From: JBBIVP01 sp037439705 [NCBI: bacterium]
GTDB taxonomy: Bacteria > JBBIVP01
Reading direction: 5' to 3'
DNA: 8,826 nt
NCBI GenBank assembly: GCA_037439705.1
Contig: JBBIVP010000084.1
Span: 1 to 8,826, forward strand
The position numbers and the translations under genes were made by a program. Under the pieces are notes generated by a model. The model was not told the DNA's origin and searched no databases. It saw nothing but the letters and a program-made list of their open reading frames with translations. Positions within the stretch are counted from its first letter, which is position 1; each line of letters begins with the position of its first letter. This document shows positions 704-8,826 of the stretch, piece after piece.

Positions 704-970
704 CAACTTCCTTCCTCACGAGACTTCTTTATTCCATGGTTGTATATTCATATAGAGGAGGTGTGCGCCGCTATGTTGACAATTTGTGAATTTTTGGTAT
801 ATTCATTTTCAGTAAGAGAGCATATAACCATCAAAGCTGGTAATTCGGAACTTTGAGCCCGAAAATGCTTAATCGGAGGTGTTATAGGAGGGAGGAGCCA
901 TTGTTCTGACCCTGAGGGTGGAAAATCCCCCTTTTGTCTTGCCTTGATGGTCTCCCCGCTACTTTCTCTC
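704..970. other. gene-free region beyond the transposase relic
   Basis: No credible gene is seen here. A 79-codon minus-strand frame (748-987) exists, but its composition is not protein-like and its 5' end overlaps the transposase relic in another frame, so I left it out. The stretch holds a near-palindrome ACCCTGAGGGT (909-919), and GTATATTCAT occurs twice as a direct repeat (742-751 and 797-806). Part of it (about 904-970) may be the downstream non-coding end of the IS110-type element. No terminator hairpin with a T-run is evident after the XRE gene. Confidence 0.4.
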
Positions 971-1376
971 TTACCAAATTCCAGCAAAGAACATCGCCTC
1001 CCTCAAAGCCGGATTTCCCCTCTTTGAAATATGCGATTTACTTCTTGCCTTCCCGGATTGATAAAAAACCAAGTTTAGCCCCATGAATTTCAAAACCTCA
1101 TTTAGGGATTGAAAAGTGCCCTCCATCCCGCTTCTCTCCTTCCATTTCCTTATTTCTTCTAAAAGACTTCTGAATCCCTCCCCATCGTTTGAAAAATTGA
1201 GTGGACCATACCTACTACCATCGGGAGTAAGTCCAACTGCAGTGTGCCTTTCTCCCTACGCTCAAACCCCACAACCAATACCTTCTCATGGTATAACTTT
1301 TCCATCTTTCACCTCCTGATTTTTTCTATAACAATAACATAAATATATCATGAATTAATATATGGCATTCTGACCC
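904..1376 (-). mobile_element. decayed IS110-family element, tentative limits
   Basis: The transposase relic at about 971-1305 is bracketed by a 9-bp direct repeat, TTCTGACCC, at 904-912 and 1368-1376 on the plus strand. If these mark the ends, about 60 nt of non-coding DNA lies on each side of the coding relic, and the right boundary falls within the last codons of ubiE. IS110 elements lack classical terminal inverted repeats and insert by a DEDD/serine recombinase guided by an element-encoded bridge RNA, so boundaries are hard to set by eye. The repeat could be chance; the presence of IS110 sequence is much firmer than its limits. Confidence 0.45.
971..1305 (-). pseudogene. IS110-family transposase remnant, internally deleted and frameshifted
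   Basis: The relic starts at ATG 1305-1303 behind a near-perfect ribosome-binding site (AGGAGGTGA), reading MEKLYHEKVLVVGFE, the usual IS110 N-terminus, where a conserved Asp would follow GF. A frameshift near 1240-1260 moves into the frame reading AVGLTPDG..YGPLNFSNDGEGF and LLEEIRKWKER, again typical of the N-terminal RuvC-like DEDD domain. The same frame then jumps directly to C-terminal Tnp_20-type sequence, SLNEVLKFMGLNL and YQSGKARSKSHISKRGN, followed by LREAMFFAG and a stop at 973-971. The SG motif is where the family's catalytic serine lies. Intact members are about 300-400 residues; here some 110 codons remain, so roughly the middle half or more is gone. It cannot encode an active transposase. 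The family call rests on my recognition of these motifs. Confidence 0.75.
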
Positions 1377-2112
1377 CAAAACCTTGTTTTATTCCAGTAT
1401 ATACAATCGCTATTCCTCCTGTTAATGCTCTTGAATCCATCACCCTTATGCCTGCTCTTTCAAGAAGCCTTATAACTTCATCTTTTTTCATAAAACCCCT
1501 GATTGATGAGGAAAGGTATTCGTAGGCTCCTTTTGAACCCGATACAATCCCTCCTATAAACGGCAGAATTTTACCAAGGTAAACGGAATATAAGAGTGAA
1601 AAAATTCTATTTTCTGGCATAGAAAACTCAAGGATGATTAATTTCCCCCCTCTTTTTAAAACCCGAACTATCTCCGAAATTCCTGTCTCATAGGAAGAAA
1701 AATTTCGCAAACCGAACCCGATGGTAATCAGGTCAAATACCCCGTCCTTAAAAGGAAGAGACAAGGCATTCCCTTTTATAAGGAAAAAGTTATCTGTGAT
1801 TTTTCTTTTTTCTGCCTTCTTCCCTGCTAATCTGAGCATTTTCTCAGAAAGGTCAACCCCAAAAACCCTGTGTCCCATGGCTCTCAATACGATTGCAAGG
1901 TCTCCTGTTCCGGTGCAAAGGTCAAGGACCGTAAGAATTTCCGGAGAATTTACAAGTTTGAAAACCGTTCTCCGCCACTTTCTGTCAAAATTTAAACTTA
2001 AAAGATGATTTAAAAAATCGTATTTATGAGCAATGGATGAAAACATTCTTTCAATCTCCTCTGGTGCGGGATTTTGCTTACCTTTTAATTTTTCCTGGCA
2101 ATATAAATTCAT
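1348..2112 (-). CDS. ubiE: demethylmenaquinone methyltransferase, UbiE/MenG family
   Basis: This SAM-dependent C-methyltransferase performs the final ring methylation of menaquinone (or the matching ubiquinone step). The 254-residue protein shows the family hallmarks: MFSSIAHKYDFLNHLLS (23-39) with DRKWRR (43-48), the SAM-binding motif LDLCTGTGDLA (63-73), GVDLS (85-89), FDLITIGFGLRN (126-137), LKRGGKLIILEFSMP (152-166), and the signature around YLGKILPFIGG and SIRGF (178-207). Its start overlaps the preceding gene by 35 bp. An internal ATG at residue 23 (2046-2044), with GAGGAG 9 nt upstream, is an alternative start, but family alignment favours some residues before it. The protein continues about 12 residues past TGGIAIVYTGIK, where relatives usually end; this tail (QGFGVRMPYINS) coincides with the suspected IS110 boundary. 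It is the third gene of the aminotransferase operon. Confidence 0.9.
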   Translation of the reverse strand: MNLYCQEKLKGKQNPAPEEIERMFSSIAHKYDFLNHLLSLNFDRKWRRTVFKLVNSPEILTVLDLCTGTGDLAIVLRAMGHRVFGVDLSEKMLRLAGKKAEKRKITDNFFLIKGNALSLPFKDGVFDLITIGFGLRNFSSYETGISEIVRVLKRGGKLIILEFSMPENRIFSLLYSVYLGKILPFIGGIVSGSKGAYEYLSSSIRGFMKKDEVIRLLERAGIRVMDSRALTGGIAIVYTGIKQGFGVRMPYINS

Positions 2113-3004
2113 ACCTTTTTCTTAGAAGGTTCATTTTAAAAAATCTGTGGGTTTTCCTCAAAAACTGAAACAGGCTCCAGATGAAGGCGTCTCTTTTGTA
2201 ATAGGATTTTACTTCTTCAAATGTTATCTTTTTATCAAGAACCCTGTTAGCCACATCTAAAACCTTATATATAATTTCCGGAACACCTTCTTTGAAAAGG
2301 TTTGCAATAAGGTCTGTGACTACGAGACGAAAATCGTAATATCTGTCAAGAATTTCCTGAAGAAATATGTATCTTACAATTATGTTTAAAATGGGTGGAA
2401 CGCTTTTTAAAAACAGTCCCGCTTTGAGCATTTCCTCACCGTTTTTCCTGTAAAGGGGAGTTGAAACATCAAAATAAAGCAGATTTATATCCTCCCTTTC
2501 CGAATCCTCCACTATCCAGTTAGAAATCTGTCCGTCAATCCCCACCTTTATATTCTCACTCCTCTCGTTGAATTCCTTCACTTTTTTCAGCTCGTAGATT
2601 ACCCGTTCAAAAACCTCTATTGCCCTTTTTTCATCCAGACCCTTTATAAAGAAATTTCCGATTTTTGATTGCGGAAATTCCCTCTGAACCACATAATAAA
2701 CAATCCTTCCATCCGAAGTTTTAATTTTTACTCCCCCTGTATCAATTACACTTATTCCCACATTCCTTAGAACTTCTATGTATTCTTTTAAAATTCTTTC
2801 GTACTCATCAGCCTCCTCCTCGCAAGAAAAAATTGGAAGCCTTTTAAAAGCAAGGGAATGAAAGGCCGGATGGTCTATCAGAAAGACCGTGCTTATTTCT
2901 CCATAACCGATAATCCTCGCCGGCATCTTACTTTTTTCTGGATATCTGGTATTTATTCCTTCCTCAAATTTTCTTAAAACTTCCTCATCTACCTCAAATC
3001 TCAT
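2078..3004 (-). CDS. protein of unknown function with kinase-like motif pattern
   Basis: I do not recognise this 308-residue protein with certainty. Its motif order resembles protein-kinase/aminoglycoside-phosphotransferase folds: a glycine-containing loop IGYGEISTVFLID (32-44), a possible ATP-binding lysine in LAFKRL (K54), an acidic helix (62-70), then GIDGQISNW (155-163), giving a D157 and N162 pair like the catalytic loop, and LLYFDVSTPL (175-184), whose D179 sits like the DFG metal-binding Asp. The HRD-type histidine is absent and the canonical DFG is FDV. The C-terminal 110 residues are helical and basic. No signal peptide or clear membrane segment is seen. It resembles DUF6206-type proteins as I remember them, but that assignment is unverified. 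Its ATG overlaps the aminotransferase stop (ATGA), and its end overlaps ubiE by 35 bp, so it is translated in step with both. A small-molecule kinase is the best guess; a non-catalytic pseudokinase is possible. Confidence 0.8.
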   Translation of the reverse strand: MRFEVDEEVLRKFEEGINTRYPEKSKMPARIIGYGEISTVFLIDHPAFHSLAFKRLPIFSCEEEADEYERILKEYIEVLRNVGISVIDTGGVKIKTSDGRIVYYVVQREFPQSKIGNFFIKGLDEKRAIEVFERVIYELKKVKEFNERSENIKVGIDGQISNWIVEDSEREDINLLYFDVSTPLYRKNGEEMLKAGLFLKSVPPILNIIVRYIFLQEILDRYYDFRLVVTDLIANLFKEGVPEIIYKVLDVANRVLDKKITFEEVKSYYKRDAFIWSLFQFLRKTHRFFKMNLLRKRYEFILPGKIKR

Positions 3005-4340: not shown

Positions 4341-4369
4341 ATTATAGATTTTGAAAATTTCTCTGTCAA
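4341..4369 (-). promoter_or_regulatory. consensus sigma-70 promoter of the aminotransferase operon
   Basis: On the minus strand TTGACA (4364-4369) and TATAAT (4341-4346) are both exact consensus hexamers with the ideal 17-nt spacer. An A/T-rich tract (about 4370-4400), including the palindrome AATTTAAATT (4376-4385), lies upstream like an UP element. Only TTAAAAAA separates the -10 from the ATG at 4332, so the predicted start site is within a base or two of the initiation codon: a leaderless mRNA. Confidence 0.8.
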
Positions 4370-5721: not shown

Positions 5722-6792
5722 ATGTCCTTGAGGGAATGGATTGCTTTAAGTTTGATAGATGGAGTGGGTCCCATAACCTTTAAGAAAATTCTTGAAAAAG
5801 GCTTGAAACCGGAGACAATTTTTTCGCTTTCAAAAAAGGAACTTGAAGGAACTGGACTTTTAAGGGAGAACCCCATTGAGGTTATAATAAAAAAAGAAAC
5901 CCTGCTCATGGCTGAAAAGATAATAGAAATCTCGGAAAAGAACAGAATAAAAATTCTCACGGTTGAATCTCCCTCATATCCCCTTCTTCTTAAACATATT
6001 CCTGACCCACCTCCTGTTCTTTATGTAATGGGAGATATGAAACCGGATGAAAGGTGTGTAGGGGTAGTGGGTACAAGAACACCCACCGAATATGGAAAAA
6101 TGGTGGCTGAAAAGATTGCCTTTCTTCTTGCATTGAACGGTGTGACTCCTGTAAGCGGAATGGCTTACGGAATTGATAGTATAGTGCATTCTTCAGCCAT
6201 GAATGGAGGTGGAAGAACAATTGCGGTTCTCGGTTCAGGTTTAATGAGGATATATCCTCCGGAACACAAAAACCTTTTCAGAAGAATATGTGAAAACGGA
6301 TGCGCTCTTTCAGAGTATCCACTATATGAAGAGCCCCATATTTCACATTTTCCTCAAAGGAATAGAATCATTTCTGGCATTTCGTCCGCTGTTATTATTG
6401 TTGAAGCGGGCGAAAAAAGTGGTGCTCTGATAACAGCAAAATTTGCGCTCGAGCAGGGAAGGGAGGTATTCGCAGTGCCAGGAAACATAACCTCTGCAAT
6501 GAGCAGGGGGACAAATAAGTTGATAAAAGAGGGAGCAACTCCCTTCACAAGTTTTGAAGACCTTTCCGAGGTTCTCGGTCAGCCTCTTCTTAATTTAAGT
6601 TCCACTAAAGATTTTCTGACCGAGAGCGAGTCCTTGCTTTTGAAATTCATAAAAAATGGAGAGGTATTTTATCCTGAAGATTTGCTATTTCTTTCACAGG
6701 AGAAGGGAACTAATGTATATGAAGTCCTTACATCCCTTGAATTAAAGGGAATTATAAAAAGGACAGAGGGAGGTGGTTTTATTAAGGGATGA
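5722..6792 (+). CDS. dprA: DNA processing protein DprA (Smf)
   Basis: DprA binds incoming single-stranded DNA in the cytoplasm and loads RecA onto it during natural transformation; it is also widespread in non-competent bacteria. The 356-residue protein has a short helical N-terminal (HhH/SAM-like) region (about 1-70), the Rossmann-like DprA domain, and a C-terminal winged helix (about 295-356, SLLLKFIKNGEVFYPEDL to GIIKRTEGG). Family motifs are VGVVGTRTPTEYG (113-125), SGMAYGID (145-152), AVLGSG, FPQRNRIISG (210-219), EAGEKSGALITA (228-239) and VPGN (252-255). Its ATG follows the lysA stop without a gap and has a purine-rich ribosome-binding site, GAGGGGAGAGG (5703-5713), inside lysA. The TGA stop overlaps the topA start as ATGA. 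The dprA-topA pairing is widely conserved among bacteria. Confidence 0.96.
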   Translation: MSLREWIALSLIDGVGPITFKKILEKGLKPETIFSLSKKELEGTGLLRENPIEVIIKKETLLMAEKIIEISEKNRIKILTVESPSYPLLLKHIPDPPPVLYVMGDMKPDERCVGVVGTRTPTEYGKMVAEKIAFLLALNGVTPVSGMAYGIDSIVHSSAMNGGGRTIAVLGSGLMRIYPPEHKNLFRRICENGCALSEYPLYEEPHISHFPQRNRIISGISSAVIIVEAGEKSGALITAKFALEQGREVFAVPGNITSAMSRGTNKLIKEGATPFTSFEDLSEVLGQPLLNLSSTKDFLTESESLLLKFIKNGEVFYPEDLLFLSQEKGTNVYEVLTSLELKGIIKRTEGGGFIKG

Positions 6793-8826
6793 AACTTGTT
6801 ATAGTTGAATCACCTGCCAAAGCAAAAACTATAAAGAGATTTCTTTGAAAGGATTTTGAAGTTATTGCTTCTTACGGGCATATAAAAGACCTTCCAAAGT
6901 CCCGTCTGGGAGTAAAGATAGAGGAAGGATTTGAGCCAGAGTATCAGACTATTCCAGCAAGGAGAGCGAGAATAAAGGAAATGAAGGAGAAGTCATATAA
7001 TGCTGAAATTGTATTTCTTGCTTCAGACCCTGATAGAGAAGGAGAGGCAATAGCCTGGCATATAGCAGAAGAGATAATGGATTCAAAGGTTATAAAAAGG
7101 GCAGTTTTTCACGAGATTACCGAAAAAGGCGTAAAAGAGGGTATAAATAATCCGAGAGAACTTGACGAAAATCTGTATAATGCCCAAAAAGCAAGAAGGG
7201 TGCTTGACAGGCTTGTGGGTTATAAAATTTCTCCGCTTCTTTGGGATAAAGTAAAGAGAGGGATTTCTGCGGGAAGGGTTCAGTCTGTGGCGCTTAAATT
7301 TGTGGTGGAAAGGGAGAAGGAAATAGAAGCTTTTGTCCCGAAGGAGTACTGGACAATTACTGTATTTTTTGAAAAGGACGGTAAAAGGTTTTCTGCGGAG
7401 CTAAGGACAAAAGACCCGATTTCCGATGAAGCAGCTTCAAAGAAAATCGTTGAGGAGATAAATGATAAAGAGTTTATCGTTAAAGAGGTAACAAAAAAGG
7501 AAAGAAGGGTGAATCCCCCACCTCCTTACATTACGAGCACCCTTCAGCAGGATGCATTCAAAAAACTTGGTTTTTCGGCGGAGAGAACGATGAGGGTCGC
7601 TCAGAACCTTTATGAAGGAGTTGATGCAGGTCCTTATGGAAGACTTGGTCTTATTACATACATGAGAACAGATTCTGTAAGGATAGCGGAAGAGGCAATA
7701 GAAAGGGTAAGGCAGGTGATAGAAAATGAATTCGGCAGGGATTATCTTCCTGATAAAGCGAGAATTTACAGGAACAAGGAGTCCGCACAGGATGCCCATG
7801 AGGCAATAAGACCTGCAGATGTTAAAATAACGCCATCATCTATAAAGGAATATATTTCAAAAGATGAAGGTAAACTTTATGAGATCATATGGAGAAGGTT
7901 TCTGGCATGCCAGATGAATCCTGCAGTATATGAAATAATTATCGCTGAACTTGTATGTGGAGATTATGTGTTTAAGGCATCGGGTTCAAGGCTTTTATTT
8001 GATGGTTTTAAAAAGGTTTATGAGGAGGAAAGGGAAGAGGGGGAAGATGGAGCAGGAATTCTTCCAGTTTTGGAAGAGGGGGAGGTTTTAAAACCTGTAG
8101 AAATAAAGCCGGAACAGCACTGGACGAAGCCTCCTCCAAGGTATAACGAAAGCAGTCTCATTAAAGAGCTTGAAGAAAAGGGAATAGGAAGACCCTCAAC
8201 CTACGCTACAATAATTTCAACTCTGAAGAAAAGGGGTTATGTAAAAGTAGAGAATGGAAGGTTCCATCCCACTGCCCTCGGAACTCTTGTCTGTGAAATC
8301 CTCCTTCAGCATTTTGCGGAGATAATGGATACAAATTTTACTGCGAGGATGGAAAGACAACTTGACCTGATAGAAAGGGGAGAAGAGGAATGGAGAAAGA
8401 CAGTTTCCAGTTTTTATTCTTTACTTAAAGAGTATCTCCGTAATGCAGAGAAAGACATAGAAAACTATAAGGGTAAGGGAATAAAGACAGAACTTAAATG
8501 CCCTCTTTGTGGAGGGGAAACATATATAAAGATGGGAAAGAATGGAGAATTCATTGCTTGCGGAAATTATCCCGCCTGTAATTTTTCTTCCAATTTCAAA
8601 AAGGAAAAGGATGGAAAAATTGTCCTTCTATCAGATGAAATTATAGAGGGCAGTTGTCCTCAATGCGGGTCACCGCTTTCTGTAAAGCGGACAAAAAAGG
8701 GGTTGAGGTTTATTGCCTGTTCCTCATATCCAGTCTGTAAGTGGACTTCTTCATACAAAATCGGTGAAAAGTGTCCCTCCTGCGGGGCAGAGCTCGTGGA
8801 AAGGATTTCAAAAAAAGGGAAAATTT
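6789..8826 (+). CDS. topA: DNA topoisomerase I, in-frame TGA at codon 20, runs off the right edge
   Basis: TopA relaxes negative supercoils by cutting one strand through a 5'-phosphotyrosine. About 679 codons are visible. Toprim motifs are MKLVIVESPAKAKTI (catalytic Glu7) and ASDPDREGEAIAWHIA (78-93; D80, D82, E84). The core includes SAGRVQSVALK, the active-site GLITYMRTDS with Tyr291 and Arg293, DAHEAIRP, and EKGIGRPSTYA. Two C4 zinc ribbons follow (first cysteines C571 and C623) and a third begins at C662 and is cut by the window end. Codon 20 (6846-6848) is TGA where relatives usually have Gly (FLG.DFEV). The frame is the same on both sides, so this is a substitution rather than an indel, and no other in-frame stop occurs. 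The next ATG (6981) would lose Glu7, so a restart could not give an active enzyme. The gene overlaps dprA by 4 bp; GGAGGTGG at 6769-6776 is the likely ribosome-binding site. Confidence 0.93.
6846..6848 (+). other. topA: in-frame TGA in topA at a conserved glycine position
   Basis: The codon lies between KTIKRFL and KDFEVIASYGHIKDLP; the equivalent E. coli segment reads [20 protein letters not shown], so TGA replaces Gly. GGA to TGA is one G-to-T change, and GGA is a common Gly codon here. TGA also terminates the aminotransferase, ubiE and dprA genes, so it normally means stop in this genome. Readthrough, recent mutation or a base-call error cannot be separated from sequence alone. Confidence 0.85.

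What the first reader, a model, noticed from the sequence alone, without database searches (positions are those of the whole stretch)
6789..6980. topA interrupted by a TGA exactly at a conserved glycine codon
The frame is intact and family-like on both sides of codon 20, with the substitution at a Gly that TopA proteins generally keep. TopA is normally essential, and downstream restart would lose the catalytic Glu7, so a true stop should be costly. UGA=Gly is known in Gracilibacteria/SR1 (code 25), but three other genes here end at TGA and none has internal TGA in roughly 2,000 codons, so a genome-wide code change does not fit. Options: base error, strain-specific lesion, or local readthrough, which could limit TopA output.
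Basis: partly seen in the sequence, partly recalled or inferred. Interest (0 to 1): 0.6.

Follow-up and report, generated by a model that had tools for sequence, protein, structure and literature searches.

The report
Lone stop codon in intact topA
An otherwise ordinary bacterial DNA topoisomerase I gene carries one stop codon near its start, most likely a single-base sequence error or a very recent mutation rather than a new way of reading the genetic code.

Summary
The TGA is real in the supplied sequence: window 6846-6848, codon 20 of a topA frame that starts at 6789 and is otherwise open to the window's end. Read through, the protein is a normal bacterial TopA (TIGR01051, 804.9 bits). The position is usually Gly (100 of 109 distinct related loci) but not strictly kept: 4 have Lys, Asp or Arg; 5 lack the residue, including the locus most identical to the window. 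None has a stop there. A changed code does not fit: 2,577 codons with 203 Gly codons hold no other internal TGA, and three of six complete genes end at TGA. RNA at and after the stop folds no better than shuffled controls. No whole genome, close relative or reads could be reached, so error and recent lesion cannot be separated. Best reading: one isolated base change, more likely a consensus error than a fixed lesion; programmed readthrough is not excluded but has no positive support. In three bacterial groups a lone mid-gene topA stop turned up in at least 1 of 602 matching genomes (printed rows were cut). Low interest.

The parts
6789..8826 (+). topA, type I DNA topoisomerase, first 679 codons; runs off the window
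   Evidence: TIGR01051 804.9 bits against cut-off 456.4 when the TGA is read through; Toprim, Topoisom_bac and Zn_ribbon_Top1 in Pfam
6846..6848 (+). in-frame TGA, codon 20 of topA
   Evidence: translation and codon table
6807..6809 (+). codon 7, Glu of the VESPAKA motif, upstream of the TGA
   Evidence: translation, aligned with solved TopAs; its catalytic role is recalled
6981..6983 (+). first in-frame ATG/GTG/TTG after the TGA (codon 65)
5722..6792 (+). dprA, ends at TGA, overlaps the topA start (ATGA); an example of TGA as terminator
   Evidence: TIGR00732 255.1 bits; reading through adds 3 codons
4459..5721 (+). lysA, diaminopimelate decarboxylase, ends at TAA
   Evidence: TIGR01048 516 bits

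Best explanation
The TGA is one isolated base change in a TopA gene whose rest, as far as the window goes, is intact. Most likely it is an error in the assembled sequence at one base, and the organism's gene has a sense codon there. Shown: one stop, frame intact on both sides, no sign of another code, no other lesion. Inferred: that the change is in the sequence record and not in the cell.
For: Single stop in 679 codons and no frameshift. TGA is one substitution from GGA, which makes up 111 of 203 Gly codons in the window; Gly stands here in 100 of 109 distinct related loci and none has a stop. G+C at third positions after the stop (0.358) lies within that of the other genes (0.319-0.376), so the downstream part looks like a live gene. 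TopA loss is costly in bacteria studied (starts of the abstracts of PMC6160223 and PMC10648598, listing). G>T changes are described as an oxidative sequencing artefact (start of the abstract of PMC12390751, on exome data, listing). A lone mid-gene stop in topA was also seen in at least 1 of 602 matching genomes of three groups.
Against: No reads, coverage or second assembly could be examined, and the quality of the record is unknown; the artefact was not tested. The residue is not essential in the family, and TGA is one substitution from codons of several other amino acids too, so which sense codon this lineage has, or whether it has one there at all, is not known: the locus with the highest identity lacks the residue. 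The 19 codons before the stop have a third-position G+C of 0.158, though the sample is tiny. topA is not indispensable everywhere: a listed title is on the viability of E. coli lacking it (PMC3313902, title and start of abstract).
Confidence: 0.6

Rival explanations
1. A real, very recent nonsense mutation in the sampled strain or population. Little full-length TopA is made, by leaky UGA reading, and the cell gets by through a second type IA topoisomerase or changes in gyrase.
For: The frame is otherwise undamaged, as expected of a recent change. E. coli topA mutants grow with compensatory gyrase changes or topo IV amplification (start of the abstract of PMC6160223, listing). UGA is described as leaky, with 6% readthrough of a TGA mutant in B. 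subtilis (passage of PMC7918605). In-frame stops in bacterial genes are reported as widespread (abstract of PMC7918605).
Against: An assembly consensus would show it only if it were the major allele, which is hard to square with a costly loss (inference). No decay elsewhere in the part of the gene seen.
Confidence: 0.28
2. A kept in-frame stop read through at a set rate, so that UGA readthrough limits TopA output.
For: The stop lies early, at a position that accepts several residues or none, so whichever residue is put in could be tolerated (inference). Sequences around shared in-frame stops in bacteria are reported to be under purifying selection (abstract of PMC7918605).
Against: No relative examined has a stop here: 0 of 109 distinct loci, all distant. 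RNA at or after the stop folds no better than shuffles (z -0.22, 0.37, -0.14; a stretch across the start and the stop gives z -1.40, reached by 21 of 200 shuffles). No Rfam match at gathering scores.
Confidence: 0.09
3. UGA is a sense codon in this organism (Gly as in code 25, Trp as in code 4) or selenocysteine at this site.
For: TGA stands where most TopAs examined have Gly.
Against: No other internal TGA among 2,577 codons with 203 Gly and 18 Trp codons; if 5% of Gly codons were TGA the chance of none elsewhere is 3e-5, at 2% it is 0.017. ubiE, the aminotransferase gene and dprA end at TGA; dprA and the aminotransferase would run on only 3 codons, ubiE 62. Folding after the TGA is no better than shuffles.
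Confidence: 0.02

Closest known systems
Isolated in-frame stop codons in bacterial genes (Belinky et al. 2021, PMC7918605; abstract and passages seen)
   Same: One stop in an otherwise intact conserved gene
   Different: Those authors considered only stops shared by two or more genomes, to reduce sequencing errors (passage); this one is shared by no relative examined here
UGA = glycine, code 25 (BD1-5, SR1, Gracilibacteria; PMC4032931, passages seen)
   Same: UGA at a position that is usually Gly
   Different: There UGA is translated as Gly, with many peptides in support; here it occurs once inside a gene and UGA ends three genes
Bacterial topoisomerase I, TIGR01051
   Same: Match of domains and motifs over the part in the window
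   Different: Only the TGA at codon 20

Membership tests
Bacterial TopA (TIGR01051) | Score above the curated cut-off | tested here: met
   804.9 bits against 456.4, with TGA read as Gly
Bacterial TopA (TIGR01051) | Toprim domain, type IA core, C4 zinc ribbons | tested here: met
   PF01751, PF01131, PF01396; DPDREGE and ITYMRTDS aligned with solved TopAs
Genetic code 25 (UGA = Gly) | Internal TGA at Gly positions in many genes | tested here: not met
   one internal TGA in 2,577 codons with 203 Gly codons
Genetic code 25 (UGA = Gly) | TGA not used as terminator | tested here: not met
   ubiE, aminotransferase and dprA end at TGA
Genetic code 25 (UGA = Gly) | tRNA-Gly with anticodon UCA | not testable with these tools
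   no whole genome is held; no tRNA in the window
Selenoprotein | Hairpin (bacterial SECIS) just after the UGA | tested here: inconclusive
   50 and 70 nt from the UGA fold no better than shuffles, z 0.37 and -0.14; a short hairpin is not excluded by an energy test
Selenoprotein | SelA, SelB, SelC in the genome | not testable with these tools
   no whole genome held
Conserved programmed readthrough | Stop kept at the same codon in relatives | tested here: inconclusive
   0 of 109 distinct loci, but all are distant (best identity 54-56%)

The most novel reading that the evidence does not exclude
An early UGA, kept by selection, throttles the amount of TopA through leaky reading and so links DNA supercoiling to the rate of UGA readthrough in this lineage.
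Probability: 0.06. Interest if true: 0.6.

Novelty: not a real feature. Interest (0 to 1): 0.12.

Why it matters
If the stop were real and kept, it would be a rare case of a core DNA-topology enzyme controlled by stop-codon reading. As the evidence stands it shows how one base in one assembled sequence can mimic recoding.

Tried and rejected
A search of 198 genomes of one phylum gave a highest identity of 56%, and the class of that genome has 6 members in the holding, none nearer. A TopA tree of 65 rows puts the window on a long branch (1.06), grouped with three Thermodesulfobacteriota-like rows at open support of 90; the smallest well-supported set that holds it has 24 rows. LysA matches 19 of 21 chosen genomes, at most 52% identical. 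The lineage is therefore not named.

Selenocysteine and structured readthrough: folding of 50, 70 and 100 nt at or after the stop, and of 81 nt across start and stop, gave nothing beyond shuffles; Rfam gave no match at gathering scores.

Internal stops flagged in G242 (TAG) and G410 (TAA) lie at query residues 669 and 665, where the alignment reaches the variable C-terminal part and seems to run past the gene's own stop; they were not counted as lesions. The TAG of G074 (query residue 430) is mid-gene and was counted. A TGA in L022 (query residue 529) lies where that alignment has left the family's sequence and was not counted. A distant second hit in G091 with one TAG (33% identity) is not TopA proper and was not counted.

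Rows dropped: the codon-20 count saw 114 loci; one (L014) had no alignment there, and L086, L087, L088 and L104 repeat L028, L042, L039 and L028, which leaves 109. The sample is uneven: 5 are viral, many are Paenibacillus or other Bacillota, and L112-L114 were fetched because they had been flagged. The codon tally printed by that script carries over a codon for gap rows, so only its residue tally is used. For the tree, repeats, short rows and most Bacillota/Ktedonobacterales rows were left out (65 rows kept). A paper search for topA with premature stop or nonsense mutation matched 200 papers; none of the 12 titles shown is about bacterial topA.

Full report
In the frame that starts at ATG 6789, codon 20 (6846-6848) is TGA, and the frame is open before it and for 659 codons after it to the window's end. 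The other two frames of the same stretch hold 50 and 51 stops, so the open frame is no accident. The ATG overlaps the TGA of dprA as ATGA.

With the TGA read through, the product matches bacterial TopA: TIGR01051 at 804.9 bits (cut-off 456.4) over profile positions 1-630 of 632, with Toprim, the type IA core and zinc ribbons. Solved TopAs align over the stop without a gap there and have Gly at that position in 6ozw, 4rul and 2gai (that 4rul is the E. coli enzyme is recalled). The first ATG, GTG or TTG after the stop is codon 65, so restart would lose Glu7; that this Glu is catalytic is recalled.

How well is the position kept? Of 114 loci, 113 aligned over codon 20; without four repeats, 109 distinct loci remain: 100 Gly, 2 Lys, 1 Asp, 1 Arg, 5 with no residue. 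None has a stop. The sample is uneven (viral, Paenibacillus and other Bacillota rows). The five without the residue include the locus with the highest identity to the window (L090; 54 to 56% depending on the method). The site tolerates change, and the sense codon of this lineage cannot be read off with certainty.

A changed code does not fit. The seven frames hold 2,577 codons with 203 Gly (111 GGA) and 18 TGG, and no other internal TGA; the six genes other than topA hold 1,899 of these. If 5% of Gly codons were TGA, the chance of seeing none elsewhere would be 3e-5; at 2% it would be 0.017, so a very sparing use of UGA for Gly is disfavoured less strongly. ubiE, the aminotransferase gene and dprA end at TGA; reading through dprA or the aminotransferase adds only 3 codons before TAG, reading through ubiE 62. 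In a BD1-5 bacterium, where UGA is Gly, 97 peptides were unique to that reading (passage of PMC4032931); no peptide data are at hand here.

Selenocysteine or structured readthrough has no positive support. RNA of 50, 70 and 100 nt at or after the stop folds like shuffled sequence (z 0.37, -0.14, -0.22); 81 nt across start and stop give z -1.40, reached by 21 of 200 shuffles. Rfam has no match in the window at gathering scores. An energy test does not exclude a short hairpin.

Background. In TopA searches of three groups (phyla of G002, G011 and G009), 189 of 198, 276 of 286 and 137 of 148 genomes matched. The printed rows flag three internal stops in TopA; two lie near the C-terminal end at query residues 665 and 669 and one, the TAG of G074, is a mid-gene stop in an intact frame. 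That is at least 1 of 602 matching genomes; the printed lists were cut, so weaker rows were not seen, and some matches are partial. A lone stop in an assembled topA is rare but not unheard of, and it need not be TGA.

The tree leaves the lineage unplaced.

Verdict. The part of the gene in the window shows one base-level lesion and no decay: third-position G+C after the stop is 0.358, within the 0.319-0.376 of the other genes (the 19 codons before the stop have 0.158, too few to judge). For a gene whose loss is costly (starts of the abstracts of PMC6160223 and PMC10648598, listing; but see the title of PMC3313902 on E. coli cells without it) the likeliest source of a lone stop is the sequence record. 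G>T changes are described as an oxidative sequencing artefact (start of the abstract of PMC12390751, listing), and a change from GGA to TGA would be of that kind, but this was not tested. A recent real mutation is the main rival. Kept readthrough is not excluded and has no positive evidence.

Noticed in passing
L090, L099, L101, L103, L028 (class of G153): TopAs of 5 of the 6 genomes of this small class lack the residue that aligns with codon 20, a one-residue deletion between the VESPAKA and GHIKDLP motifs; the sixth (L105) has Arg and an insert there.
   Followed up: partly
L112 (G074:C241): A TopA with a single mid-gene TAG in an otherwise intact frame, at query residue 430; could be an error or amber reading.
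   Followed up: partly
window 2078-3004, minus strand: A DUF6206 protein (PF19709, 98.7 bits) between an aminotransferase gene (ATGA overlap) and ubiE (35-base overlap); relatives in 18 of 395 genomes of one phylum.
   Followed up: partly
window 4341-4369, minus strand: A perfect sigma-70-like promoter match (12 of 12, 17-base spacer) just upstream of the aminotransferase gene, in the gap shared with lysA; the scan as a whole found no more sites than shuffles (19 against 19.0).
   Followed up: no
genomes G091, G124 and G153: Distant second hits with one internal stop in long frames: G091 a 1472-residue topoisomerase-like frame and a decarboxylase-like frame (TAG each), G124 a decarboxylase-like frame (TAG), G153 one with TAA; amber reading in this class might be worth a look.
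   Followed up: no
window 704-1347: About 640 bases between the HTH regulator and ubiE where the ORF list shows nothing longer than 79 residues.
   Followed up: no
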